A stretch of DNA of 64,000 nucleotides from Alitta virens (taxonomy: Eukaryota; Annelida; Polychaeta; Phyllodocida; Nereididae): the NCBI GenBank assembly GCA_932294295.1, contig OW028579.1, positions 5,602,370-5,666,369 of the forward strand, in the 5' to 3' direction. Shown piece by piece: positions 39,134-61,569 of this stretch. The notes below the pieces were generated by a model. The model ran no database searches and was not told the DNA's origin. It was given only the letters and a program-made list of their open reading frames with translations. How positions within the stretch are numbered: the first letter of the stretch is position 1; the number at the start of each line of letters is the position of its first letter. A program made the translations under genes and the position numbers.

Positions 39134-41228
39134 TTATCGAGACAAGACATTACTTGTATTAACACTCACAACACCAATGAAATGTCGAAAAGTGCGTCTG
39201 AAATCTGGATACATAAGAAGATATACAGGTGGATTCAGAAGACAGTTGATATAGAGAAAATTGACTAACCAAAAGTTTATGCTATCATTGAATATGGAAG
39301 GCACAAAAGTGTATGCCAACATATACAATGTAGACGGAAAATAAGATGCAAGAAATATTCCAACAATGACAAGCAGCATTCTTGTTATTCTCATTTGAGC
39401 GGAAATATAGGAATTATGGTTGTCTCTGTTTTCAGTTTGGTCAATGTTCTCTCCATCTTTTTCAGTTTGGTCAATGTTCTCTCCATCTTTTTCAGTTTGG
39501 TCAATGTTCTCTCCATCTTTTTCAGTTTGGTCAATGTTCACTCCATCTTTTTCAGTTTGGTCAATGTTCTCTCCATCTTTTTCAGTTTGGTCAATGTTCT
39601 CTCCATCTTTTTTCAGTTTGGTCAATATTCTCTCCATCTTTTTTAGTTTGGTCAATGTTCTCTCCATCTTTTTCAGTTTGGTCAATGTTCTCTCCATCTT
39701 TTTCAGTTTGGTCAATGTTCTCTCCATCTTTTTCAGTTTGGTCAATGTTCTCTCCATCTTTTTCAGTTTGGTCAATGTTCTCTCCATCTTTTTCAGTTTG
39801 GTCATTGTTCTCTCCATCTTTTTCAGTTTGGTCAATGTTCTCTCCATCTTTTTCAGTTTGGTCAATGTTCTCTCCATCTTTTTCAGTTTGGTCATTGTTC
39901 ACTCCATCTTTTTCAGTTTGGTCATTGTTCTCTCCATCTTTTTCTTGGTGGCTGTTTCTGTTATTCTGAATATTCAAAGTTTGAATTCTTCTGGAATTCG
40001 AAGCATGGTGACAATCAATCTCAGTGTCACGATTGTCGATGATGATGGTGGATGAGCTAAATGGAAAATGCGAGGAAGGAATCTCGAAGTCCGAATGTGA
40101 CTGCACTGAAGAATTCGAGTTCGAAGTATAAATTGCTTTCGAAGTGCATGGCTTGGCATCTGTCAAGACATCGTTGCAAGCTTCCTGTATGCTTTGAAGT
40201 TTAGTCATTGCCACGTCACTGCGATTCCCTCGTACTTCACGTGACACCCATGCACTATCACTCTGATATACAACAACATCCTTGCCGGTCAGATTCTCTG
40301 GCTGATAATCGCTCAGATGTTCTGCAGAAGTCGTAAATGCCACCTGCCTGTTGTTCTCTTGTTCTCCATCTTGATGTATGGAAATAATGGTTTCTTGTTG
40401 GTCACTCGTGTTACTGCTGTTGTTCATGTGGAGGACAGGTGCAACAATTGTGTCTTTTGAGCATGGTGGCAACACACTCACAACGTTTTGTACTATTTCG
40501 CAACCAACTTTGTTCTTTTTCCGAAGGACAGTCTGTAGACTAAGCGCAAGTACTTTCGTTCTCTGATATTGCTTGTATCCCGTAAGCCCGACATAGCAAT
40601 GAAGGACCAATGTTGTGATGTTGATCAAAAATATCAAACCAAAACCAATGATTATTTTTGCTTTAGGGAGATAGTAAAGTGCCAAACATACAGCTCCAGA
40701 AGGCATGTGGGAGGTGAAATAGTTACTTGCTAAATAAACTATAAAAATTATCCAGGGACCTATAATGAGCATCAACACTAATTTTCTTGTCATTATCGCG
40801 TGATATTGCAGAGGTTTGGTGATATAAATGCAGCGATCTAATGCTAAGAGTAAGATAGCCCATGCTTCATTCATGGTGAAGACACCAAACAGAAAGGCTT
40901 TCAGCTGACACAGTACTTCAATTTCAGGTTTTAAAATGTACACATTACGAGTGAAATAATTTATCAGCAAGGTTGTGCTAAGAATAAAATCCTGGATGCA
41001 GACATTAAGTATAAAATTGTGAGTTTCCTCCCAAGAGTGCCTGATGCAGTACAAGGCACAGATAATAACAGCATTCCCAATGATGGCTCCGATAGCTATG
41101 AACCATCTAACAGACACAGCAAAGTTATTGTAAGTCAAAAATCCTGGGCCAAGGATACTTGTCATTTTGTCATTGAAATATGTGGAATCACTGAAGTTCG
41201 CCTGGTATGAGGTGGTGATGTTTTCCAT
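39134..41228 (-). CDS. Rhodopsin-class GPCR with a minisatellite-encoded third loop, frameshifted in this sequence
   Basis: The upstream frame encodes an N-glycosylated N-terminus, TM1 (IGAIIGNAVII), TM2 with its conserved Asp (CIQDFI), TM3 with Cys and DRC in place of DRY, TM4 with Trp, and TM5. A long third intracellular loop follows. The other frame (from the repeat to 39134) encodes TM6 (LASYFP) and TM7 with NPPVY, the NPxxY motif. The two frames meet in a 30-bp repeat encoding EKDGENIDQT. The unit at 39601-39631 has six T instead of five, which ends the upstream frame at 39591 (EKRWREH). I chose the ATG at 41228 (MENITTSY) because TTTACAG|AGC at 41240 looks like a splice acceptor; an in-frame ATG at 41258 would be intronic. 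Residue 3.32 is Phe, not Asp, so an aminergic ligand is unlikely. Assembly error versus a real broken allele is open. Confidence 0.8.
39430..39946 (-). repeat. 30-bp coding minisatellite, about 17 units
   Basis: Each unit encodes EKDGENIDQT on the minus strand, with ENNDQT and KKDG variants. All units are 30 bp except the 31-bp one at 39601-39631. Confidence 0.95.
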
Positions 41229-41258
41229 ATTGAAAGAGCTCTGTAAAAATCGGTACAT

Positions 41259-43312: not shown

Positions 43313-43391
43313 CAATCGCTCCTTAAGACATAAAAGTATTGGCAAAAACTTTCCAAAGAACCGTATCTCAAGAATTAGATATAGACCTATA

Positions 43392-43479
43392 ACTACAGAA
43401 GCTATCTTATAGGTTCAAAGGGATGCCGCCCCCTGAGGCTATAAGATCAAAGGATCCCTGCAGGTGCCTGCGGCTATTA
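43392..43479 (+). repeat. Left terminal inverted repeat of the virus-like element
   Basis: Starts 'actacagaagctatcttata' and ends 'gcctgcggctatta'. It differs from the right copy at two of 88 bases. Confidence 0.9.
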
Positions 43480-45113
43480 AGATCAAGACATAGAGGCAAG
43501 TGACAACCCCCCAGGCGATAGTGCCTGTGGCAATGACGTTTAGTAGTCATTTAGCTGCTCAAAGAAGCCCCCCAGGGTAAAATGCAAAGAAGTGTGAATA
43601 TGTTGAATGAACAGTTTAAAGCATGAATAACTGTCATTTAAATTAAATTAAATTGTTTAATATGACATATTAAGCAGTCATTGAGAGCTTTATTATTATT
43701 ATTATTATTATTAGTTATATTATAAAAAACTGATTGTCTCTAGTGTATTAAAAAGCTACCCAATCACTGAGTCATCCCATTGAAATATGAAGGACCAAAT
43801 TACTTTTTAAAAAACAATGGAAAGCTTACAGCCCTGTGCGCTTCTTTATTAGACACACTAAAAGCTACACAAGGCTGTTCACTGGGAATGTCATAAGTCA
43901 AATGTATTTTCCAGCATATCTAATTCCTTGTTTATTGTGAGGTACACATGCATGAATGCATGAATACATGAATGCATGCCTGCATGCATGCATTGAATGT
44001 ATTGAATGCATGTAGTATTCAACATTATCCAGTGGTGTTGAGTTAGCACCACAGCCACTCAGTGTAAACATCATAGTAATATCAATTGTGCTTTATAGTG
44101 TATTTAAAATCCTTTGTTTATAAGTAAGCATACATGTAGTATGACTTATCAGTGAACCACAAAAGCACAAGTGTGTATGTGTGTGTGTCCAGTGATGCTC
44201 AGTGATGCTCAGTTAGCAGAGTCACCCAGTACAATGAAAGAGGAGCTGTTGTCAAATGCCCTGAGGCTTATCAATGAAAACTTATGATAGGCTGACTTTT
44301 TAGCTTGTGTCCCAGAGCACTGGCCATACAGAATTGGCCACCTGGTGGTCAGCCCTCACATTGTTCTGTGTTGTCTTTGACTAGTAATGTTAGAGTAAAA
44401 AGCACTTTAATAAACATCAGTAAATGTACTTCTGAAAAACTTTTATTCACACAGACATATCTCACCACTCATACAGTTAACTAAAATCCTTAACACTTTC
44501 ATACAGTTAAAAATAAAATAATAAAATAAGTGTTCTAAGCAGCAAAACAGTCCAAGCACTTTCATGCATTTAAAATGAAAATAATGAAATAACTAAATAA
44601 GTACCAAATAGTAAGCAGTAAACTAGATTAACTGAAACCTATGGGCCCCACCCATCAGACATACTAAACACATTCATGCTGTTAAAAATAATGGAGTGAA
44701 CATTCCTTATCACCAAGCATACTAAAAAAACACTTTCATGCAAGTTAAAAAAAAAAAATGCAAACATCCAACACTAAACAGTAAACTCTGTTAATTAACA
44801 AAAAATCCTTAACAGCAGACATACTAAACACTTTTATGTTAGTTAAAAAATAAAATAAATAAGTAATGACTCAAAACATTCAATACTAAACGGTAAACTC
44901 CATTAATTATCAACAAACCTTAACACCAAGCATGTTAAACACTCTCATGCCGTTAAAAAAAAATAAAATAAAAAAAATAATGAAATAAACAATAAATGGT
45001 AAGCGGCAAACTAGCTCTGTAAATGAATCCAAATCCATAATTACTGTAAAACACAATTGCTAATTACCTGGAAATAATAAAAAAACCTAGAGTATGTACA
45101 CACATATATACAC

Positions 45114-45144
<31 letters not shown>

Positions 45145-45265
45145 GCAGTTAAAGAAAATAGACAGCAAAATCAATAAAAAAATAAAAATAAATAATAATA
45201 ATAATAATAATAAAAAAACTGTACATCAATAAATCATCCAGTCTTGTGACCACAGCCCTAAAACT
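43480..45265. repeat. Left non-coding arm with degenerate repeats
   Basis: 43940-44015 is rich in 'gcatg' words. 44450-45000 holds about six diverged copies around 'taaacactttcatgcngtta' plus 'actaaacagtaaactc', spaced irregularly by about 60-115 bp, then (TA)n at 45110-45145 and (ATA)n. No coding region. Confidence 0.65.
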
Positions 45266-45685
45266 TTAAACCACGCCATTTCTCAGTCGAGCCGGCAAAA
45301 TGTTATTTAAATCTAGGCCTCCTAGAGCGCGGTTACGTCGGATACCTGCAGCTCTCCTTTCGATCACAGGCTGTCTACGCCCACGCACTCGCGCACGCCG
45401 TTGTATTACCGGACCCACGTTCTTGATTTCGATGTTGTTGTTGTCGTTGTTGTTCACGATGTTGTTGTCGTTGTGGGCATTTTCCGCGTTTTGCATTTCA
45501 ATCGCGCCTATGAGCCATCTAGCCATTCTCACTAGCATCACCAAAAATGCATTTCTGTCATTGGCATTTTCGTATGCCAGCATCTGGTCGACATTCCAAA
45601 TGTACAATAATATGAGGCGTCCGAGTAAACTTAAGGCTGTGGTCACAGCTAGGTCATGTAGTCGTTCAAGGATGTAGTCTCTTGT
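45266..45685 (-). CDS. Arg-rich protein, 3' exon (virus-like element)
   Basis: A strong splice acceptor (TTCTATTCTTTTCAG|ACA) at 45685 suggests this is a final exon. From there the frame gives about 139 residues starting TRDYILERLHDL. A hydrophobic stretch (TTALSLLGRLILLYIW) is followed by an Asn/Asp-rich linker and a strongly basic end (RRARVRGRRQP, RRAAGIRRNRALGG). I do not recognise the family. A basic tail could bind nucleic acid, as virion core proteins do, but that is inference. If unspliced, the same frame could start at 45733. The upstream exon was not found: the donor at 46188 (AACGAG|GTGGGT) lies after the stop of the neighbouring gene. Confidence 0.55.
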   Translation of the reverse strand, partial: TRDYILERLHDLAVTTALSLLGRLILLYIWNVDQMLAYENANDRNAFLVMLVRMARWLIGAIEMQNAENAHNDNNIVNNNDNNNIEIKNVGPVIQRRARVRGRRQPVIERRAAGIRRNRALGGLDLNNILPARLRNGVV

Positions 45686-46197
45686 CTGAAAAGAATAGAA
45701 ATAATAGTTAAGCATTTTGGCTATACTGAACTTCAATCCTATATTTTGGCTATACTGAACTTCAATCCTTAATAAGCAATGGTCACTGTGTCATGTTGCA
45801 CTTGGGTTGTGCTTGTATTTTGCCCGGTTGACAGGTCAGGGTTGTCAAGGCTACTATGGAGAATGCATTATAGGAAAAGATAAACTACTGATTTCTTACA
45901 TGTATGGCTGCATGACAGGAGTGGACTGCCATCAACAGTGAAGGGAGCATCACTAGATAATTAGCTGACTCTAGTGAATTTACCCTGTACTGACAGATGA
46001 CACCTACAGTACAAGCTGTGTCATTAAAGAAAATGAGTCTCAATCTACATGAACACTTCTCCATTGAAAAGAATACGAGTAATAAGCAATTTCTGCACAA
46101 ATTTTTGACATTTCTAGTGAATTTACGGTGTACTTTTAAAAGTGGTATGGCTGAGTAGAGTTAATTTACAGGGATCAGGTAACCCACCTCGTTATGC

Positions 46198-46923
46198 TCA
46201 GAATGTCGTCGAAGAACCTCTCACACCCTGCTCCAGTGTGTGCAAGCAGCAACCAGTGCATTTGCAGATTTTGGCACAAAAATGGAATGGGCACAAGAAA
46301 ACTGCCATGCATTTTAAACAGCAGCTTACGGCGAACATAGGGGGGTCATTGCAGCGTGCTTGGGTGTTAATGCGAGCATGGAGATTAACTAAACTTACCA
46401 AAATGCACGCTGTCAAAATGGCCCCTATGAGCCCAGAAGCCACTGTCCATGCTAACATGCCGTTCAGGAGCTGCGCTGACGCTACTGCAGCCCTCTGCTT
46501 GTGCTCATCGGTGCCTCGGCTGTCTACGCTGCTGCCTCTCATCGGGTACCTGGAAGTGACCGTGCTCGGTGTAGCGAAGCGGCCGTCAAAAGGCGAAGGG
46601 GGGCTGTTGGATGTTGATGACATAATGCATACTATATCGGGGAATTCCATAGCGATCAGCTCACATTGTTCTTTCGTGACAGCCAAGATTAGGACCCGAT
46701 CAAAGCCGTACGTTTCCGAGAGACTCGTCACTCTGAAGTCAGAGTTTGCCTCGATTGTCAGTCTCTTTCCTTGTCGGTATTCGTCATCGAAGTAAGGGGC
46801 CGTGGTGATCGCTGTGCACATAACTTCTCCCGATGAGGTGCATCTGCACTGAGCATCATTCCCGCAAATCCAGGCATCCGTGGGACGCATCCCCAGAGCC
46901 AAAAACAGAAAGATCCAAAGCAT
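46198..46923 (-). CDS. Signal-peptide single-pass membrane protein with Cys-rich tail (virus-like element)
   Basis: 241 residues from the ATG at 46923, chosen because a good signal peptide begins there (MLWIFLFLALGMRPTDA). The frame is open 159 bases further upstream without a second convincing start. The ectodomain (about 20-150) has a C.C.C...G.V.C cluster like an LRR N-terminal cap, then a short region with hydrophobic spacing. A membrane segment lies near 152-182, followed by a tail of about 58 residues with nine cysteines, possible lipidation sites. Type I topology is inferred. In a viral element it could be a virion or host-cell surface protein; no family was recognised with certainty. 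Confidence 0.7.
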   Translation of the reverse strand: MLWIFLFLALGMRPTDAWICGNDAQCRCTSSGEVMCTAITTAPYFDDEYRQGKRLTIEANSDFRVTSLSETYGFDRVLILAVTKEQCELIAMEFPDIVCIMSSTSNSPPSPFDGRFATPSTVTSRYPMRGSSVDSRGTDEHKQRAAVASAQLLNGMLAWTVASGLIGAILTACILVSLVNLHARINTQARCNDPPMFAVSCCLKCMAVFLCPFHFCAKICKCTGCCLHTLEQGVRGSSTTF

Positions 46924-48169
46924 TTTTCCTTTTCTTTTTTCAGTGGTCAATGTCAAAAACGTCTTGCTTCTCCAAAATATCAGTGCTGTATGAGCCCTTG
47001 CACTTGCAAAACACCCCAGCACAGAGGGGGGGTAAAGTCTGTGATTACATAACACAACAAAAGACCCCCAATTCCAGGCCAATCCTAAGACAATAGATAG
47101 GGTATAATCTATTCAAACTGAGAGTTATATTCACACATATAGTGCGCTACTGTTGTTTTGTATCAGAACAAATGAATATTATAAAACCAATTGTTTCAAT
47201 AAATGTCAGCAAACAGTGAATTATCTCTGTATACCGAATTATGGAGCATTGTGATTGATTCCTGTAGTTCTCATAAAGCCTCACATTTTGTTAATATACT
47301 TTGAATGGAAAAAAATTAAAATTGAAAGAGTCATTAAAGATACTCATGAAATTCAGAGGTAGGGAAATAGTATTATGCTGAATTATAGGCCATTTGTAAT
47401 TGAGTCTATAAATTCCTATAAATTTAACATTTTTGAAATTTACATTTACATTTATAAACGAAATGGCCTCAAGAGAAATAATTAAAGATAAATTGTCTGC
47501 AAAACTTCTGTCTTAGCAAAATGTGTGCTCGTTTAACACCAGAGCAGAATTTCACTATGAAAACAGTAACTGGAATTTCTCATTGCTCTTAAAGTATCTC
47601 CTGTGCAATGAAAGTACTTATTCCATGATTCTCATTTAAAAAGAGAATATTACTAATTTTTGGCTGTTTTTGTCTAAATCAGTAAATTGCAACAAGAGAT
47701 TAGTGTTTGCATGCTATTAAAGTCATTGTCTCATTACATCACCTGGTTAATGCATGTTTTAAAGTTGCCAATTATGTGAGATTTGTTTAACTGCTGTGTG
47801 AACAATAGACTTTTATAATACATTACAATGATGAGGGCTAATAGGTGGGGGTGTTGGGGGTGGGGCAGAGTCAAAATGCTTGAGTCATTAGATGAGGCAT
47901 GCAATTGTACAGCAATTATGCAAATTAAGCACATGCATTTACAGCTGACTGATGAAATCTCACTAATACTCAATCGGTGAGGGCCACTGGTAGAGGCTGA
48001 CAGTACATGCAGTCACACAAGACCCAGCATATGTGACCTTTGAGGTCAAGCTCATGGACGGCACAAGTGACCATTAGTAAAAGTGCTCCCCCCTGATGCC
48101 AACAAGTTTCCCCCCCTCTCTTCCCCCCTCCTCAGCTCCCACTGAGATTGCCTGAGGCAAAATAAGTCA
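46924..48169. other. Spacer of the virus-like element between divergent units
   Basis: No coding region. It lies between the minus-strand membrane protein and the plus-strand TATA box at 48170, so it probably holds both promoters. Confidence 0.5.
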
Positions 48170-48394
48170 TATAAAAAAGCACGAAGACTGGAGCATCTCC
48201 ATCACTTGACTTTGTGCTCTTTACACGAAAAATACTTCAATCGCGCCGTCTTCAGGATCTCAGCTCTACTCTACTCTACTCTACTCTACTCTACACTCTA
48301 CCAACTACTGTCTACTGGTTACTCTCTACTGGATATCAACCGCAAGGTACTCGTCTCAACTCGTCGGCTGTCATTTCACAGTAAAAAAGAAAAG
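48170..48394 (+). promoter_or_regulatory. TATA box and probable non-coding first exon with splice donor
   Basis: TATAAAAAAG at 48170-48179 would place a start near 48200. The following stretch includes (CTCTA)n at 48266-48292, contains no ATG, and ends at AAAAG|GTAAGTG (48394/48395), a near-perfect donor. A plus-strand acceptor at 51252 would lead into the polymerase fragment. Inferred from signals only. Confidence 0.5.
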
Positions 48395-48479
48395 GTAAGT
48401 GAAATAGTTTTAACCGCTGTAATGACATTGTATTGGTGTACTTATTAGACATCGCCGAGTGACTATTAAGAATTGACAC

Positions 48480-48535
48480 GTGGCTCTCAGCTCTCAGCTC
48501 TCAGCGCTCTGCGCTCTGCGCTCTGCGCTGGACTA
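48480..48535. repeat. Short CTCAG/CTCTGCG tandem repeats
   Basis: 'gctctcag' three times, then 'cgctctg' four times, immediately after the putative intron start. Confidence 0.8.
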
Positions 48536-48698
48536 CCTGCAGTCAGTTATCCGTCACGCTCCAGTACTTATAACTATTTTAATACCGTAATACAGTAATG
48601 CGGGATATTGAATTACGAAAAAGTCCATTTTCTGTGTATACCACCTTTTATTATACCTAGTAACACAATACAACGAAATACAATGCTATACAATACAA

Positions 48699-49065
48699 TT
48701 AATATTACTATTACAACTCCATAAGTACAACAAAATTGTATATACACGGATTACCTTAATTCCGAGTATTTTACATTTATTAAATATATCGAAATAGTCA
48801 AATTGAATAACTACAATACAATTAATATTACACACGTAGCTAGTTAAGTATAACGAAATGTTACATCTGCAGATTACATTAATTCCGTGTATATTGCATT
48901 TATTAAATATCTCTAAATAATCAATTCAAATAACTACGGCGTAATTAATGTTATACATACAACTCATTAAACTCAACAGAATATTACATATACGGATTAC
49001 AGCAATTCCGAGTATATAGCATTTATTAAATATATCTAAATAAGCAAATCAAATAACTAGGAAAT
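48699..49065. repeat. Three tandem degenerate repeats of about 120 bp (virus-like element)
   Basis: Each unit contains 'attaatatta', 'acggattac', 'aattccgagtat' and 'catttattaaatat.tc.aaa', in that order. The set is AT-rich and non-coding, and lies between the plus-strand first exon and the protease gene. Confidence 0.8.
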
Positions 49066-49297
49066 TACTCACTACTTCCTAATCAACTCAACGTAATTAA
49101 TATTGCCAAATAAGGACATAGACATTCATCTCATGCATTATAACGTAGTGTTCTGTTCATATCATTCATTCATTCCATTCATTCATTCATATCGAGCGTA
49201 TTACAGTTATCCTTGTATATCACATTTTATCTCAAATTTCTACATATTTATGGTTTACTCGTCCTGTATAATTAAATAAAAATAAGAAAAAAATTAC

Positions 49298-49813
49298 TCA
49301 AGTCTGTCTGCCATATAGCATCAGACAATGTTCTTTCACATCTCCAATTCCTTCCATTATATTTAAAACACTGGTGGGATTAAAGGCCCTACAACGATAA
49401 TAGGAGTACACTAGAGTGTAAAAACCGCAATTAGCTTTAGAAAGGTACTGGTAATTGTATGAACAGCTGTCGAATTGTCTCATAAACATGCATATTTCTT
49501 CGTTGTAGACACTCTCTCCACGAGGATCGAAAACTTCTAAACTCGAGCCCAGGTCCACCCGATCGCCAACTTCGACTTCGACTTCGACTTCTACTCCAAC
49601 GTCCACGTCAACATCAGTGGAATGGACGCCCAGGAAAATCCAATGTCCGACGTCACCGCGTAAGTACGAGTTTGCATTGCAATTCATGATGTAACAGCCC
49701 CTCACTGCAGAGGCTGAGATGTATTTCAGAGCATTGCATGGTATTACAGCCATCACGTATGACGATACAGCCGCATCATTCCACAGCATTTCATATATTT
49801 GATCAGTGTTCAT
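49298..49813 (-). CDS. Adenain-like cysteine protease (family C5 type)
   Basis: 171 residues. The order and spacing of His57 (in GHWIFLGVHS), Asp96 (VFDP), Gln122 (YNYQY) and Cys129 (NCGFY) match the catalytic His-acidic-Gln-Cys set of adenovirus-type maturation proteases, also found in Mavericks, where they cleave virion precursors. A Val/Asp/Glu-rich insertion (about 67-87), encoded by a 'cgactt' repeat, sits between His and Asp. The gene follows the capsid-like gene by 95 bp on the same strand, so they may be co-transcribed. The frame is complete with no stop. Activity is not shown. Confidence 0.75.
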   Translation of the reverse strand: MNTDQIYEMLWNDAAVSSYVMAVIPCNALKYISASAVRGCYIMNCNANSYLRGDVGHWIFLGVHSTDVDVDVGVEVEVEVEVGDRVDLGSSLEVFDPRGESVYNEEICMFMRQFDSCSYNYQYLSKANCGFYTLVYSYYRCRAFNPTSVLNIMEGIGDVKEHCLMLYGRQT

Positions 49814-49908
49814 GTCAGATAGATGTTTCTAGCGTAGTCAATCTGAAATAGGCCTGGATATGTCTCTTTGGTGATCATGACAGCTGATTCGGGTAGTGGT
49901 GACTTAAA

Positions 49909-51117
49909 TCAGAGTTCTATTCTCACGCACCCGTCTCTTGTCACAGGATAAAAGTCTTCATAGTTTTGAGGAGCCAAGTCTATGACAAATAAACTAACCG
50001 TCTTTGTATTCCTCTCTGGTGATCCTAGCTTCGTTGCTGAAATTAGACTTTCTCCTGTAAAGCTCCGAATAGCAGTGTATGTACTTGTCCTCTGCAAAGT
50101 CGATACTCCTGACACAAAACCCATCACAATCTTACTCGGTATGCGACCATTGTATGCATCTTCTATGTAATACAAAGAGGTGTCCTTGGCTAAATTAAAT
50201 TTTCGTAAATCTTCTTTCTTGTAGAAATACTTGGCTAGAGAGATTTCTTCTTCCATGACTTTTTGATGTCCAAGTAATACTAGATTTGATGGCGTCACAT
50301 GTTTCAGAATAAGTGTAATGTCCTTAATTTCCAGTACATAGTCTCTCTTGTTGACGTTTGAACTCAGTAGTCTGAAGCTGCTGGAAGTGGGTGTAAGAGT
50401 CATGTCCATGGTTACCCCATTTAAAAGTAACTTATTCACTTTAAAGACATCGACATCCACTTTGCACATTAGCTCAACAGTTTTGCTACCACTCATGAGT
50501 GAGGCCTTCTTTTTAAATCCCTTATTGGTTCCTGACACCAGGCTCACATCCTCCATACATCTCGCAGTGTCCTTCTCGAACAAAGAGCATTCCAGTTGAG
50601 CATCATTAAGATCCCCCTCTCCTAGCAGTGTATTTATTATCGCCTTGTAACTGTAACCCGTCTGTCCGCCTGTGACTACTCTGTCATTTAGTCTTACTTC
50701 CACTTGATCCCACAGAGCATGAGCCAGGTTATTTACAACACCTACACTCCAGTCTCCTTCAGAGTCATCATTGTCTTGGACATCATCATCATCATCAGCA
50801 GCAGCAGCTCCTGCGGCTCCTGCAGCACCCGAACCTTTTTTTTTCTTTCCAGCCCCCCTTTCAGGGATGGGGGAGCCTCGGTCAGTAGCAATCCGGACTC
50901 TAGTCTTTATGTAGACACTTGACATGTCAATGTATGCTGTGCCGGCTCCAGGCACATGAAATTTCACATCTCCCTCTGACGAAAATTGATTAATCGGCTT
51001 GTGAGTTAAATATTTAATGTCAGTCACTCCTAGGTTGCTGAGAGGTAGACTGAACAAATTAAGAGTGTCATCATAGGCTAACTCTTTTGATTCCAGAACC
51101 TTTTCACCTGATGCCAT
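49909..51117 (-). CDS. Capsid-like protein (F54H12.2-like family, probable)
   Basis: 402 residues, complete frame. It starts MASGEKVLES, and N-terminal beta-rich segments include FHVPGAGTAYIDM. A low-complexity linker (about 81-122: Lys run, Ala/Gly run, Asp run) is followed by VEVRLNDRVV and further alternating hydrophobic strands to a conserved-looking end (VIDLAPQNYEDF). As far as I recall, this pattern matches proteins labelled F54H12.2-like in invertebrate genomes, which accompany PolB and protease genes in Maverick-like elements. A jelly-roll capsid role is inference from that setting. Trinucleotide (TGC)n lies just upstream at 51119-51149. Confidence 0.65.
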   Translation of the reverse strand: MASGEKVLESKELAYDDTLNLFSLPLSNLGVTDIKYLTHKPINQFSSEGDVKFHVPGAGTAYIDMSSVYIKTRVRIATDRGSPIPERGAGKKKKGSGAAGAAGAAAADDDDDVQDNDDSEGDWSVGVVNNLAHALWDQVEVRLNDRVVTGGQTGYSYKAIINTLLGEGDLNDAQLECSLFEKDTARCMEDVSLVSGTNKGFKKKASLMSGSKTVELMCKVDVDVFKVNKLLLNGVTMDMTLTPTSSSFRLLSSNVNKRDYVLEIKDITLILKHVTPSNLVLLGHQKVMEEEISLAKYFYKKEDLRKFNLAKDTSLYYIEDAYNGRIPSKIVMGFVSGVSTLQRTSTYTAIRSFTGESLISATKLGSPERNTKTVSLFVIDLAPQNYEDFYPVTRDGCVRIEL

Positions 51118-51149
<32 letters not shown>

Positions 51150-51248
51150 TTGATGTTGTTGTTGCTGCACCGTTTACCGTTTACTGTTTACTGAAAATGT
51201 CCTTGAGCTTAGTGATTTTTTTCTTCTTCCTGTCGTTCGCTGGCTTAG

Positions 51249-52256
51249 GCAGTAGGCTACATAGTGATCAAGATCTTTGAGGTCTATCACTTCGAGGAAA
51301 CGGCCAAGTTCGATAAGACGCAAAACATGCCAGGACTGTTTTCCGACTATGTGAACTTGTTCCTGAAAGGAAAGCAGGAAGCATCGGGTTGGCCTTCCTC
51401 TGCCATGTCGCATGAAGCGCAAACAGAGTATATTGATCAGTATGAAGAGGTTGAAGGCATCAAACTAGAATGTGAAAACATTTCATACAATTTGGGGAAA
51501 AGGGCCACGAATAAACTGCTCTTGAACAGTTTCTGGGGCAAGTTTGGTGAAAACAACAATCACCGTACTCACAAGCTTGCCGAAACAGGGGCTGATATTT
51601 TCAAGCTGCTGGTCAACCCCTCCATAGCACTCAAGGGTATGCATGTCCTTGACAGTAATCGCTGCATGGTAGAGTATGTGCACTCTGAGGGGTTCCTACC
51701 CGAAATGGCTCATGTGAATGTTTTTGTTGCTGCCTTCACCACTGCCAATGCCCGGAGTCGTCTTTTTAATGTCTTACATAACTTGGGACGCCGGGTACTC
51801 TATTTTGACACAGACAGTGTTGTCTACGAATACACCGAGGGTGATGTCTCCCAATACACACCAGACATGGGTGATCATCTTGGTCAGTGGACTAATGAAT
51901 TGAAGGCAACGCAGTACATCTCTCGTTTCGTGAGTAGTGGACCCAAGTCATATGCCTACTTGACCAATGATGATGACAGAACGACCAAACTCAAAGGGTT
52001 CACTTTGAACCACGAAGTAGCCAGACTTTTGAACTTTGATAGCATTTGCGAACTGGTGTTGTTTTGGGCTGACCCTGACAACCATTCACTGTCAATAGAC
52101 CAACAACCTCATGTTGCTGTACCATACAGTAACATAAGGCGTAAAAAATATGAGTTCAGGCTTTTTAATAGAGAGGAAATTAAGAAATTCCGAGTGACTT
52201 ACTCGAAGAGACGTCTAGTACGTGGCACATATGACACTCTGCCTTATGGCTTTTAA
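51249..52256 (+). pseudogene. Family-B DNA polymerase, C-terminal part only
   Basis: The open frame from 51249 (after a TAG at 51246) encodes about 335 residues. It carries motif B (NKLLLNSFWGKFG, near 51510-51548) and motif C (YFDTDS, near 51801-51818), then thumb-type sequence to a natural stop. The protein-primed PolB of Mavericks and adintoviruses has an exonuclease domain and motif A upstream; neither is present in any frame nearby. The frame has no ATG at its start. It is either a 5'-deleted gene or a spliced 3' exon, since a pyrimidine-rich tract and CAG end at 51252. No frameshift lies within the remaining part. Polymerase activity is not expected without motif A. Confidence 0.8.
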
Positions 52257-52539
52257 TTTGAATTCTAATTTACTCCATAAAACACGGATAGTACTGGTAC
52301 CCCTCATTTGTCGAAATGTATATATTGTTTTTTTTTGTTTTGTTTTTTATTAATTGCAAATACTATGTTGTATTCTTTGCTGTCAACTTGTACAAAAGTG
52401 TTGTACATGTATTACTGTCTTTTTATTTTTCAGTCATTGTACATTGCGTTATTGAATGTTGTATTTATTTGTATTTATTGTAAAATAATTTGATATAAAA
52501 TAACCATGGCTGTGTGACTGCATAACTGTATAACTTCTC

Positions 52540-52790
52540 CATTGTTACATGAATTGTGAAAATAACCTGTCTAGTCTATTGCATTGTATTATTGAATGTC
52601 GTGTGAATTGTGAAAATAACTTGTCTGTTGTATTGTATCATTGAATGTTGCATGAATTGAGAAAATAACTTGTGTATTGTATTGTATTATTGAATGTTGT
52701 ATGAATTGGGAAAATAACTTGTGTATTGTATTGTATTATTGAATGTTGCGTGAATTACACAAATAACTTGTAAAATATGAAGACTTGCAT
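52540..52790. repeat. 49-bp tandem repeat, about 4.5 units, 3' of the polymerase part
   Basis: Units share 'tattgtattattgaatgttg' and 'aaaataacttgt'. Two AATAAA signals at 52853-52880 follow, in a short duplicated 'tcatgtaataaactct'. Confidence 0.85.
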
Positions 52791-52919
52791 GTAAACTAGA
52801 ATTGTGCCTATTTTAAAGAATGTGATATGAATATTAAGTTAAATTGTCATGTAATAAACTCTATTGTCATGTAATAAACTCTGAGTTTAGACAGAGCTCT
52901 AATGTATTGACATTATCAG

Positions 52920-52955
52920 CCTTCTAGTCATAATAATAATAATAATAATAATAAA
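52920..52955. repeat. (ATA)n microsatellite
   Basis: About nine 'aat' units. A second run is at 53051-53070. Confidence 0.85.
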
Positions 52956-53236
52956 TTTATTTTAAAAGTATTAGCATCGCTGTGTTATTTTTTATTTTAT
53001 TTTTTTCTGTCCATCTGTTGAATCATTGATGGAAGAGTCATCCAGGCCTAAAGATAATAATAATAATAATAGGCCTTTTTATGTTGAAATTCACAGGCAC
53101 CTTTCTGTTTCTCAAATATAAAATGATACAAGATAGAATCAAATTTCAAAAATTTTATTACATCATAAAGAAAAAATTACAGTTTATACACGAGTGTTAC
53201 ATATACTAATATACTAAAACGGATGAACCCGGTAAT

Positions 53237-54289
53237 TTAAATGGGCTGCTGTCCACTCTGCATAATTGTGGTTTTCTCTACAACTTTCTGATAGCAAGAA
53301 TCGATCAGTCTACATGACTGTAGGTCTGGTGGTGAGACAACACATTTTGCTAGAATTTCCCTGGTTCTCTCAATCCCTCCGAGATACACAAAAATGTCAT
53401 ACACATCGCTCATAAAATACAATCTTTTATGATTCAGGCAGACAGCAATTCGTTCTGAAATCTGCAAGACTTCACTTTTAAGTACTTTTGAAAGGGCAAT
53501 GTCAATCTCTTCGCAGGTCGGGGAGTTCATCATCAAGTCAGTCCAGGAATGACCAGTTTTGTCTAGGACCTGGTTGCAGAACACCTGCTCCAAAATTTCC
53601 ATTTTACCGGCCCTGTGTACATCGAGTTCGATTAGGTTATATTCACACTTCTTCTCATTGTCGGGGAGTCCTGCCAGGTAGCCCTTGACGCTGTCTTCAC
53701 AGTCTTTACGAGTAGGGTATAAAGTGTGAGACTTCATTCCTCTCTCCTGGACATTCCACTGATAAGCCCTGATGGTTGTAGCTTCCTCGAGATTAGTGGG
53801 GCTTCCCTCTCCATCCTTGGGTGGTGTAATGATGACCTGATAAATATTCTCCATTGCAGCATGGAATTTTTTGTACTCTTCTTTGCGGAGATTAATGGTC
53901 TTACTGTGGTGACATTCACTGGTATCTGTGAGTTTTTCCTGTTCAGTCTTCGGATGCAGAAAAGAAACATAGTGTAATGGTTCCTTATCACTCCTCTGAA
54001 ACTTGGTTATCATTGCAAACTGTCTCTTCGTCAAACAGACTTGGTTAGCTTCACCATTAGTCAGTGAGTTGTAAAGTTCAGCAGAAGCCTCCTTCAGCTT
54101 TTCAAATGACTTCTTGGCGATGTGGACATTCCGCCATTTGGAAGTGTCACAACTGTAGCGTGACACTGTGACATAGCCCGACTTGTATTGCTGAGCTGAA
54201 TGACCAATAACTCGTGTGTGCTCTGACAGAAAGACAGTCATTCCATTGGATCCTTGAGGAGTCTGAGTGCTAAGTTGGTTGGATGCCAT
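53237..54289 (-). CDS. Unrecognised protein of the virus-like element, possible PC4-like DNA-binding domains
   Basis: 350 residues, complete frame from MASNQLSTQ. Residues about 38-75 (VTVSRYS...WRNVHIAKKSFEKL) and about 88-150 (ITKFQRS...KTINLRKEEYKKFHAAM) each show a beta-strand then helix pattern that resembles PC4-type single-strand DNA-binding domains. I consider this tentative. The rest is mixed helical with scattered Cys. A TATA box lies about 100 bp upstream (54386-54396) and an AATAAA on the minus strand near 53155. The intact frame in a decaying element suggests recent activity. Confidence 0.65.
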   Translation of the reverse strand: MASNQLSTQTPQGSNGMTVFLSEHTRVIGHSAQQYKSGYVTVSRYSCDTSKWRNVHIAKKSFEKLKEASAELYNSLTNGEANQVCLTKRQFAMITKFQRSDKEPLHYVSFLHPKTEQEKLTDTSECHHSKTINLRKEEYKKFHAAMENIYQVIITPPKDGEGSPTNLEEATTIRAYQWNVQERGMKSHTLYPTRKDCEDSVKGYLAGLPDNEKKCEYNLIELDVHRAGKMEILEQVFCNQVLDKTGHSWTDLMMNSPTCEEIDIALSKVLKSEVLQISERIAVCLNHKRLYFMSDVYDIFVYLGGIERTREILAKCVVSPPDLQSCRLIDSCYQKVVEKTTIMQSGQQPI

Positions 54290-54385
54290 GATGTGAATGG
54301 AGAGCTGGTTCTGGGTGAGTGTATAGATAGGTTATATCTTCAAATCTTCAAATCTTCAAGAGAATACTGACTGCTGACAGAGAGG

Positions 54386-54396
54386 CCTTATTTATA
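54386..54396 (-). promoter_or_regulatory. TATA box for the gene ending at 53237
   Basis: Minus strand TATAAATAAGG, about 100 bases before the ATG at 54289. A three-fold 'aaatcttc' repeat lies between them. Confidence 0.6.
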
Positions 54397-54512
54397 CAAC
54401 ATGTAGAGTATTCTCGGAGCTGTAGGGCATATCTTGGCCACTAGTCCTTTCGCTGAGAACTTTGACCAATAACATGACAGAATGAGAGCTATAAGCCTCG
54501 AGGGCCCTGTAG

Positions 54513-54854
54513 TCAGCTCCTCCTCTTGGACAAGGTGGGAGCCGGCAGCATTATTCCCATTGATGAGGACAGAAGAGCAGTCCAAAGATTACTGTCTCCA
54601 TTACCAAGAGACAAATTGACTATACATGTGATGATGACGATATAGAGAATTACAACTTGACAAATAAAAATCACTTCATTTTTTGGTATAGTTCTACCAA
54701 ATATCTTCCACTGACTACCACTGCTCCTAGTAGAACTAATGTCTGCATTACTGGAAATTATTGAATCATGAAGATCATGGCTAGCATTTTCATTTTTAAC
54801 ATCTGAAACAATAACTTCTGGTATAAATTCTTCTGAGACATCCGCTCCCTCCAT
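54513..54854 (-). CDS. Small membrane protein of the virus-like element
   Basis: 113 residues. An acidic, Ser/Asn-rich N-terminus (1-48) is followed by WKIFGRTIPKNE, a strong membrane segment (about 60-82) and a second hydrophobic stretch (about 90-105, LWTALLSSSMGIMLP), ending in KRRS. A small two-segment hydrophobic protein of this layout recurs beside capsid-like genes in Maverick-type elements (from memory, not searched). Function unknown. It is the gene nearest the right terminal repeat and shares the strand of the capsid gene. Confidence 0.65.
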   Translation of the reverse strand: MEGADVSEEFIPEVIVSDVKNENASHDLHDSIISSNADISSTRSSGSQWKIFGRTIPKNEVIFICQVVILYIVIITCIVNLSLGNGDSNLWTALLSSSMGIMLPAPTLSKRRS

Positions 54855-55079
54855 ATCCTCAATGTTAACTGAAATGATTGGGTAATAACGCGTATTCTTA
54901 TTGTTATTATTATTATTATTATTGATATTTAGTCTTTCATTAAACTAAATGTTCACTAAATGTCAATGCCAGAGGGGGTGAAAGTCCATTTACATTTGGT
55001 TGTAGCCGCGGGGGTATGACGTTTTTTTAACTACAGTACACATGCACTTAATGCCCGGGGGGCACACAAGATCTGAACC

Positions 55080-55167
55080 TAATAGCCGCAGGCACCTGTA
55101 GGGATCCTTTGATCTCATAGCCTCAGGGGGCGGCATCCCTTTGAACCTATAAGATAGCTTCTGTAGT
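55080..55167 (-). repeat. Right terminal inverted repeat of the virus-like element
   Basis: Its reverse complement matches 43392-43479 with two mismatches. Confidence 0.9.
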
Positions 55168-55645
55168 CCTATCTCCAAAATGCCCATTGGTGAATGTAGC
55201 GGCCATCATGTTAGGCCATTACCGCAGAATGCATTGAAACATTATTTCCTATTTCAAATAAGATTAATATTGCAACTATAAGAAATTAATTTACTTTAAT
55301 TGCTTTTTTTAGAAAGCTAGACCCATAAAATACAGGTTTGGACTTCTGGTGGCACTGATAACTTGCCTAGTTCCAAAGATATACAAAATATATATGCTTT
55401 TCGGTAATGGCGGAACAAATATGGCTGCCAATACAAACAATTTTCAGGATGGGTGTATATCTGTTATTTGAACTTTATATATTTCTCTATCTTTGTGCCA
55501 AATTTTTTATTTTTACGTCAAAAGGAGTGATTGTTCTTGTATGATACACATATATACCACACTATACACAATCTGATCCTCCTTGGACTGGTTTCTTATG
55601 TTGCACTTTAAAGCTTCTATTAATTGTTTAATGAAGTGCTTAAGG
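55168..55645. other. Host flank right of the virus-like element
   Basis: AT-rich, no gene seen. 'aacaaatatggctgccaata' at 55416 resembles host sequence such as that near 1354. Confidence 0.4.
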
Positions 55646-59764: not shown

Positions 59765-61569
59765 ATGCCTTCAGAAAATGACTATGCTGATTATTTGAAT
59801 GAGGCTGACAATGAATGGGTGAGTTGGAAAGTCTTCCTTGTTGTCTATATAGCATTCTATAAGCTATAAAGTGTATCTACAAGGCAGCTGGGTGGCCTAA
59901 TGGTTAAGGCATCAGCCAATTCCACATTGGCCAGCTCTGCTGAAGGTTCCAGGTTCGATCCCTGGCCTGGGCACTCTTCATGAGCTACATCCAAGCCGGC
60001 TGTCATTTGGATGAGACATTAAATCAGCGGTCACTTGTACTCGGTGTCTATGCTGAGGCAAGTAAAAGCTCCTCTCTCTCACTCTCTCTCTCTCTCTCAC
60101 TCTCTCACCTCATCAATCAACCCTCATTAGCAGCAAGAACTTGCCTTGTAGGGCTGCACTTTCCATATCTATCTATCTATCTATATACTGATTCATTGAT
60201 CTCATTCCTGTGGTGATATTTTGATATAAGTTTTTATCAACTCAGATTGATCTAGTACAGATTTTTCACTCCAGTTGCCATTCTTTCACATATGTACCAT
60301 TCTTTTACTGACCGCCCATTGTTGCGTATTAATTTGATTCACCAGTTTCTCTTGTAATACTATGTCCTTTAAGAGCTATTTACAAATTACAAAATTCCAC
60401 ATCACATTTCCAAGTTCATCGTATATATTTTTTTAAAGTGGAACAATTCTAATTTAAAAAAGATAATTTTGACAATTACTTTCCCATATGATGTACAAAT
60501 GTCATTATCATTTTTGCAGCTGTTATGTTCTCCCTGCGAAAAATTTTCAATTAATTTTGACATTTAGAAGTGGCTTTATAATATGGTGTCATTGTTTTAT
60601 ATTCTTTTGCAGGATATGTACAATAATCCCTTCAACATTAGCTATGAGTACCCTGAAAGAAGAATCCATGCATTGGAGGGCTTGGAAGCTGTAATGGCTA
60701 ACTTGCTGACGGTACTCTTCTATCCAACCATATTAGTGACGAATGGAATCCTGTTCTTCATGATATGCAAGAATAAAAAGACCCGCGGTGAACCTTGGAG
60801 ATGGTTGATCGCCCACACTTGCCTCTGTATCTTCATCGCGACATTCATCATGTTCGTTAACATTTTCACGACCGTCTACCATCTGCCTTCTTTCGAAACT
60901 TCTGCGATTTGCCCAGCTACAAAAATTCTGGAGTCCCTCTTATGGCAGATGTTTCCAATTTCCTTCACTCTGGTCGCAACCGAGAGATTTCGCGCAATCA
61001 AAAGCGATGACTCGAAGACCGGCGGGATGGGCAAGAAGTCTGTCATTTCATCTCTCGTTATATTCTGGATTCTGAACATCCTTGTACATGTCGTGAACTT
61101 CGTGATTCCCAGTGATTATCCTATCCTTCACTATTATGATATGCTTCAATATAAGATGTGTGGCCTGAGGAATATTATGGTTACATCCTTGATGCAGCTT
61201 GTTATCTCAATATGGTCTGCTTTAACCGCTATTGTCGTCATCATTGGATCGAGTATCATCGGATGTCGGAAAGCTGACAAGGAACTGAAAAATTTTGCTA
61301 TTGTGCCAACTTTGATCACTACTGCAACTTACTTCTTCTTCTACTTTGGGGCCTACATAGTGCAGACCATTGTGCACGAAATGGGATTTGACATGGACCC
61401 AAAATTATTTATTTTTATGCACATGCTTGTCCTTATAACATGGATTGTATTTTGTCTGACTTGGATCATTTCTTGGTCAAAATCTGGAGATGCAAGCTGC
61501 AGGAATTTGTGCCCCTGCTGTCCAGGCAAGAGTGATGAAGAACTTCAACTTCTTGAAAGAAATGAATAA
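59765..61569 (+). CDS. 7TM receptor-like protein, duplication copy B (two coding exons)
   Basis: Exons 59765-59818 and 60613-61569 give 336 residues. Exon 1 is identical in protein to copy A. Exon 2 differs by twelve amino-acid-changing bases, three silent bases and one inserted GAT codon (YYDMLQ). Both splice sites, the 5'-UTR acceptor before the ATG, the TM3 Cys, the ERF motif and the CPCC tail are kept. Changes include SQ to WQ in TM3 and T to P in the loop before TM5. The frame is intact, so it is probably expressed. Function is inferred as for copy A. Confidence 0.85.
59880..60188 (+). mobile_element. tRNA-derived SINE in the intron of 7TM gene B
   Basis: Same insertion as in copy A, so it predates the duplication. 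The (TC)n tract is longer here, and the B box reads 'GGTTCGATCCC'. Confidence 0.85.

What the first reader, a model, noticed from the sequence alone, without database searches (positions are those of the whole stretch)
43392..55167. TIR-bounded virus-like element with a partial Maverick-type gene set
Two 88-bp inverted repeats, 86 of 88 identical, enclose PolB, adenain-like protease, capsid-like and small membrane-protein frames. The near-identical ends and six frames without stops point to a young insertion, yet no integrase or packaging ATPase is visible. It may be a deleted copy that depends on a relative, or a lineage with a different gene set.
Basis: partly seen in the sequence, partly recalled or inferred. 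Interest (0 to 1): 0.9.

Follow-up and report, generated by a model that had tools for sequence, protein, structure and literature searches.

The report
Half-deleted Maverick transposon in a ragworm
This stretch is one copy of a large virus-like mobile element (a Maverick/Polinton) in a marine worm that has lost its middle half; longer sister copies sit elsewhere in the same genome, so the copy is ordinary decay, although one sister copy looks like a spliced, helper-dependent version and deserves a second look.

Summary
The 88-bp inverted repeats (86/88) bound an 11,776-bp insertion at exactly 43392-55167, and an empty site 24 kb downstream (99% over 260 bp) shows the uninterrupted target CCTATC. 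Chromosome lengths match Alitta virens, chromosome 7. The element belongs to a Polinton/Maverick family: of 22 copies whose two ends I paired, 21 have perfect 6-bp target duplications (window 5/6) and 17 are 20.4-23.9 kb long. Pieces of sister copies encode PolB, an rve+chromo integrase and an A32-like ATPase. The window copy lost about 10 kb between its capsid gene and mid-PolB. The junction has 2-nt microhomology and was found nowhere else among 40 scored places of 164 candidates, so this reads as one deleted copy, not a lineage with another gene set or a deleted form that multiplied. Its capsid gene is also damaged. Most likely the deletion happened in place after insertion; this is inferred. 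Related find: a copy on C9 is a right-arm/right-arm chimera of two lineages, has a perfect 6-bp duplication, and showed no integrase or capsid match. It is the better case for helper-dependent integration.

The parts
43386..43391 (.). left target site duplication, CCTATA (one change from CCTATC)
   Evidence: original target CCTATC seen in empty-site paralog
43392..43479 (+). left terminal inverted repeat, 88 bp
45266..45715 (-). 149-aa frame, one hydrophobic segment; unknown function
   Evidence: same frame in sister copy L031:2390-2911
46198..46923 (-). 241-aa frame, two hydrophobic segments, Cys-rich tail; unknown function
   Evidence: present in L031; no Pfam or PHROG match
49298..49813 (-). 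adenain-like cysteine protease, 171 aa
   Evidence: (H57, D96, C129 conserved)
49909..51117 (-). double-jelly-roll-like major capsid gene, damaged: about 0.1 kb lost, about 33 codons out of frame, early stop
51248..51249 (.). junction of the ~10 kb internal deletion, 2-nt microhomology
51249..52256 (+). C-terminal remnant of PolB (335 codons)
53237..54289 (-). 350-aa conserved protein of unknown function
   Evidence: 17 homologs in unnamed public sources; no Pfam match
54513..54854 (-). 113-aa frame, one hydrophobic segment
   Evidence: same end in L033
55080..55167 (-). right terminal inverted repeat, 88 bp, 86 of 88 to the left
55168..55173 (.). right target site duplication, CCTATC (original state)

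Best explanation
The feature is one integrated copy of a Polinton/Maverick family of Alitta virens (usual length about 22 kb). Shown: it inserted at CCTATC with a 6-bp duplication, into one copy of a locally duplicated region that holds a GPCR-like frame. Shown: about 10 kb between the start of the capsid gene and the middle of PolB is missing, which removes penton-like, integrase, ATPase and N-terminal PolB genes. Inferred: the loss happened in place after insertion, by end joining across a 2-nt microhomology, and the copy is now decaying and cannot move by its own genes. Inferred from known Polinton biology: the parent family copies itself with PolB and inserts with the integrase. The confidence given is for identity and deletion; for the timing (in place) it is about two to one.
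For: Exact empty site. 6-bp duplications perfect in 21 of 22 end pairs, window 5 of 6. Pieces of sister copies with rve+Chromo integrase (E 6e-12, 8e-7), PolB (1.4e-36) and A32-like ATPase (1.8e-4, just under the curated cut-off). Homology break at 51248/51249. Junction query full length at 1 of 40 scored places, the window itself. In 7 of the 8 sister copies for which one search lists both halves in the same orientation, the missing segment is 9.88-10.06 kb; in the eighth (C11:12205492) the halves lie 17.7 kb apart. Of 22 paired copies only the window's is under 20 kb. Further lesions in the capsid gene. Private substitutions 6/1509 and 5/1501 in the two ends.
Against: The timing of the deletion relative to insertion is not shown; a deletion just before a single insertion would look the same. 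The C9 copy suggests that integrase-less forms may get integrated. Only 40 of 164 candidates were scored, so a shared junction in a more diverged copy could be missed.
Confidence: 0.9

Rival explanations
1. The deletion happened in the extrachromosomal (viral or transposition) genome, and the deleted form was inserted once by an integrase supplied by a full-length copy, like a defective genome. (Same identity as the best explanation; only the timing differs.)
For: Ends and target duplication are intact, all that an integrase in trans would be expected to need. The C9 copy shows no integrase or capsid match yet has a perfect 6-bp duplication.
Against: Junction found only here. At 11.8 kb it is half the usual length, while the C9 chimera keeps 21.6 kb. 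The capsid gene has other lesions, as expected of decay in place.
Confidence: 0.33
2. A separate lineage of virus-like element with a reduced gene set (no integrase, no ATPase).
For: None beyond the window itself lacking those genes.
Against: PolB is cut at the junction, sister copies about 94-99% identical carry the missing genes, and no second copy with this junction was found.
Confidence: 0.02
3. Assembly error: two ends of different copies joined.
For: The family has many near-identical copies, which can confuse assembly.
Against: Flanks match one empty site, so both ends belong to one insertion, and there are no Ns in the element.
Confidence: 0.03

Closest known systems
Polinton/Maverick elements (polintoviruses)
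   Same: TIRs, 6-bp target duplications, PolB, rve integrase, A32-like ATPase, adenain-like protease, double-jelly-roll-like capsid in the family
   Different: The window copy is missing integrase, ATPase, penton-like gene and most of PolB; the family is about 22 kb, slightly above the 15-20 kb quoted in PMC4028283 (passages read)
Intact vertebrate Mavericks (PMC8097293, passages read)
   Same: 6-bp duplications; the usual length here lies within their 12.7-24.6 kb range
   Different: More open integrase frames here (91 of 100 scored places without a stop in the matched stretch) than the 38 intact copies given as the vertebrate maximum; that paper's 'intact' needs seven or eight genes, so the numbers are not like for like
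Adenovirus defective genomes with duplicated ends (recalled, no call)
   Same: The C9 copy joins two right arms in inverted order and keeps near-standard length
   Different: C9 is integrated, its arm ends come from two lineages, and only one example was found

Membership tests
Polinton/Maverick (family of the window copy) | terminal inverted repeats | tested here: met
Polinton/Maverick (family of the window copy) | 6-bp target site duplication | tested here: met
   21 of 22 pairs perfect, window 5 of 6 with original target seen in the empty site
Polinton/Maverick (family of the window copy) | protein-primed type PolB | tested here: met
   DNA_pol_B_2 E 1.4e-36 in L033, PHROG DNA polymerase 1e-39; protein priming itself not tested. 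Window keeps only the last 335 codons
Polinton/Maverick (family of the window copy) | RVE integrase | tested here: met
   rve and Chromo in L032; absent from the window copy by deletion
Polinton/Maverick (family of the window copy) | FtsK/A32-like packaging ATPase | tested here: inconclusive
   Pox_A32 E 1.8e-4, just under the curated cut-off (21.5 against 22.8 bits); no PHROG match; absent from the window copy
Polinton/Maverick (family of the window copy) | adenain-like protease | tested here: met
   no direct Pfam match of note but profile match to relatives that hit Peptidase_C5 and Peptidase_C48; controls negative
Polinton/Maverick (family of the window copy) | double jelly-roll capsid protein | tested here: met
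Polinton/Maverick (family of the window copy) | penton (minor capsid) protein | tested here: inconclusive
   153-aa frame L032:6893-7351 next to the capsid gene; no Pfam or PHROG match; label recalled from gene order
Adintoviridae | placement in a PolB or capsid phylogeny with named adintoviruses | not tested
   no named reference sequences were fetched

The most novel reading that the evidence does not exclude
The Polinton population of Alitta virens behaves like a recombining viral population that makes defective genomes. The C9 copy (C9:4750778-4772407) is a fold-back chimera of two right arms from two lineages. No integrase or capsid match was found in it, it keeps near-standard length (21.6 kb), and it still has a fresh 6-bp duplication, as if packaged or at least inserted with help from full-length relatives. 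The window copy would then be a second, internally deleted class.
Probability: 0.3. Interest if true: 0.7.

Novelty: new member of a known kind. Interest (0 to 1): 0.38.

Why it matters
It settles an apparent 'virus-like element with a strange gene set' as a decayed copy of a known kind, with an exact empty site to prove the boundaries. It also points to a genome with many recent, open-framed Polintons. There, recombination between copies, helper-dependent insertion and size limits can be tested by comparing individuals; these are open questions for elements whose particles had not been observed as of 2021 (PMC8097293, start of abstract seen).

Tried and rejected
A lineage lacking integrase and ATPase was rejected by sister copies. 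TIR divergence as a clock was rejected: both window differences recur in another copy's right end, and the 22 pairs differ by 0-4 of 88 although 21 have perfect duplications. A deleted sub-family that multiplied was not found. Free viral relatives in IMG/VR: none (29 pattern matches, 0 confirmed; the tool warns that records near the window's genome may be left out). Direct Pfam/PHROG/PDB naming of the capsid and protease gave nothing or weak hits. A genome search with PF21738 (26 scored) found 2 places and with PF00770 (100 scored) 95 places; none lies inside the 22 paired copies. The capsid and protease were therefore named by profile comparison with those relatives against four unrelated controls. 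Papers: no paper of the library holds both Polinton and Alitta. Alitta virens plus Maverick gives one paper, whose passages do not report this. Polinton plus defective interfering gives one paper, seen in the listing only. Listings (20 of 51 shown; 25 of 111; 15 of 23; 4 of 4; 10 of 578; 8 of 22) showed no title on deleted or palindromic Polintons; beyond PMC10352625, PMC8556966, PMC4028283 and PMC8097293 (passages) no paper was opened. An in-place repair origin of the C9 chimera (copying another copy's right arm after a break) cannot be excluded. Ends left out of the 22 pairs: left ends L007 and L024 (the latter has a likely partner at C14:10828548, not fetched), right ends L044, L048 and L059-L063, and the right-end matches without a locus.

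After the one check of the report I ran five comparisons (four controls and one relative), mended '326 of 335' for PolB, widened the count of deletion sizes to 7 of 8 copies, and replaced 'environmental' by 'unnamed public' sources.
Full report
WHERE IT IS. The window is G000:C7:5602370-5666369 in a 671,116,069-bp, 23-contig genome. The lengths of contigs C1-C14 shown agree within about 0.02 Mb with the 14 chromosomes of Alitta virens wpAliVire1 (PMC10352625, passages with Table 2 read), so the host is almost certainly the king ragworm, chromosome 7.

THE OBSERVATION. Inverted repeats lie at 43392-43485 and 55074-55167, with 86 of 88 matching in the strict repeat and no other match above 39 of 88 in the window. 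In the 30 end loci the repeat starts at the same base, ACTACA. I paired both ends of 22 copies; 21 have identical 6-bp flanking duplications, and the window has CCTATA/CCTATC. Joining 130 bp of each host flank and searching the genome found an uninterrupted site at C7:5681363-5681622, 99% identical over all 260 bp. It reads CCTATC once, so the element is exactly 43392-55167 and the left duplication has one later change. The flanks of the two sites are 98.4% (3,966-bp main piece) and 98.5% (479 bp) identical: a local duplication that includes the GPCR-like frame 39591-41258, with the element in one copy only. The insertion is therefore younger than that duplication, barring gene conversion.

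WHAT IT IS. Sister copies are mostly 20.4-23.9 kb (17 of 22, the C9 chimera among them; two are 29.6-29.7 kb, two 66-76 kb, the window 11.8 kb). I read one piece from each of three different copies. They carry an rve integrase with chromodomain, a long PolB frame and a Pox_A32-like ATPase just under Pfam's cut-off. The window matches these pieces at roughly 94-98% over its main aligned blocks (lower in repeat-rich stretches) up to 51249 on one side and from 51248 on the other; the 2-nt overlap is microhomology. From coordinates, 7 of the 8 sister copies with both halves listed in the same orientation have 9.88-10.06 kb there; the eighth (C11:12205492) has 17.7 kb, and in the copy at C6:15373755 the halves lie in opposite orientation. 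What is missing: a penton-like 153-aa frame (label recalled), the integrase, two frames with low-complexity tails, the ATPase, a 190-aa frame and the first 953 or more codons of PolB.

GENES LEFT. The protease has conserved H57, D96 and C129 (numbering of the window protein) in its homologs (one of the nine homologs is too short to show the Cys). It has no direct Pfam hit of note. A Pfam Peptidase_C5 search of the genome gave 95 matches among 100 scored candidates, none inside the 22 paired copies; four of those relatives, which also hit Peptidase_C48, aligned to the window protease profile at prob 93, E 2.9e-7, against prob 0.1 for two unrelated proteins. The capsid family (23 public homologs) matches a genome-encoded DJR-like protein at prob 94, E 1.4e-7, against prob 0.2 for two unrelated proteins; 2 of 20 family members hit the DJR-like Pfam model weakly, and a 57%-identical relative hits it at 2.9e-5, under the cut-off. 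In the window the capsid frame is open but has lost about 0.1 kb, runs about 33 codons out of frame and stops early; open frames of 426-498 codons, stop to stop, exist in 17 sister copies. The 350-aa protein has 17 homologs, two of them at 31% identity, and no Pfam domain; one homolog has weak PHROG hits (best E 0.0014, function unknown; an HNH endonuclease family at 0.011).

DID THE DELETED FORM MOVE? The junction query matched full length only at the window itself; the other 39 of 40 scored places matched one half only (164 candidates, so diverged copies could be missed). So there is no sign that it multiplied. Private substitutions are 6 of 1509 and 5 of 1501 sites in the two ends; other copies have 0-11. 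The window copy is thus older than the youngest: five right ends, one of them an arm of C9, are identical over 1,590 bp. I take deletion in place as most likely (about two to one), mainly because the form is unique, is half length and has other lesions.

A RELATED COPY THAT MAY MATTER MORE. C9:4750778-4772407 has right-type ends on both sides with a perfect duplication AGGAAT. I read its two ends and the middle 8 kb, not the rest. The middle is an inverted repeat (99.1% over 2.9 kb), joined head to head at about C9:4762654, with no Ns. It holds the PolB-side sequence twice and one ATPase frame, and no integrase sequence. No integrase match (100 of 1,416 candidates scored) and no capsid match (103 of 1,315 scored, last rows not listed) falls in the copy. 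One arm end is identical to four other copies' right ends, the other is 0.06% from a different copy; the arm ends differ by 0.70%, at sites where other copies also vary. The junction was found only here (1 of 40 scored, 184 candidates). Either two genomes recombined before one insertion with a borrowed integrase, or the copy was rebuilt in place after insertion. Other copies are mosaics too: the copy at C1:22364700 has a left end 0.06-0.19% from one group and a right end 0.89% from that group's but 0.13% from another copy's.

HOW COMMON. Of 100 scored integrase places (best first, 1,416 candidates), 91 have no stop in the matched stretch. This is a lower bound for the genome, is biased to the best copies, and includes related families down to 76% identity.

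VERDICT. The window feature is a partly deleted member of a known kind, well explained. The residual interest lies in the C9 chimera and the recent activity of the family.

Noticed in passing
G000:C9:4750778-4772407 (L035, L055, L064): Right-arm/right-arm chimeric copy, no integrase or capsid match, perfect 6-bp duplication, near-standard length
   Followed up: partly
G000:C1:22364700-22386638 and others: Mosaic copies: left and right ends belong to different sequence groups
   Followed up: partly
G000:C6:15373755-15449479, C4:36785113-36851229, C11:12205492-12235064, C7:30713731-30743459: Copies whose ends share a 6-bp duplication but lie 29.6-76 kb apart, probably enlarged by other insertions
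   Followed up: no
genome-wide: 95 places match adenovirus endoprotease at E up to 1, none inside the 22 paired copies: probably other Polinton lineages
   Followed up: partly
window 39591-41258: GPCR-like frame with a 30-bp tandem repeat in its 3' part, locally duplicated about 36 kb downstream (L065)
   Followed up: partly
G000:C4:16349835-16350052 and C4:16356365-16356582: Two right ends with the same host flank 6.5 kb apart, probably a local duplication after insertion
   Followed up: no
window 59886-59974: tRNA-Trp predicted by ARAGORN
   Followed up: no
P0024: Public protein 99% identical to the window protease; its source organism is not shown
   Followed up: no
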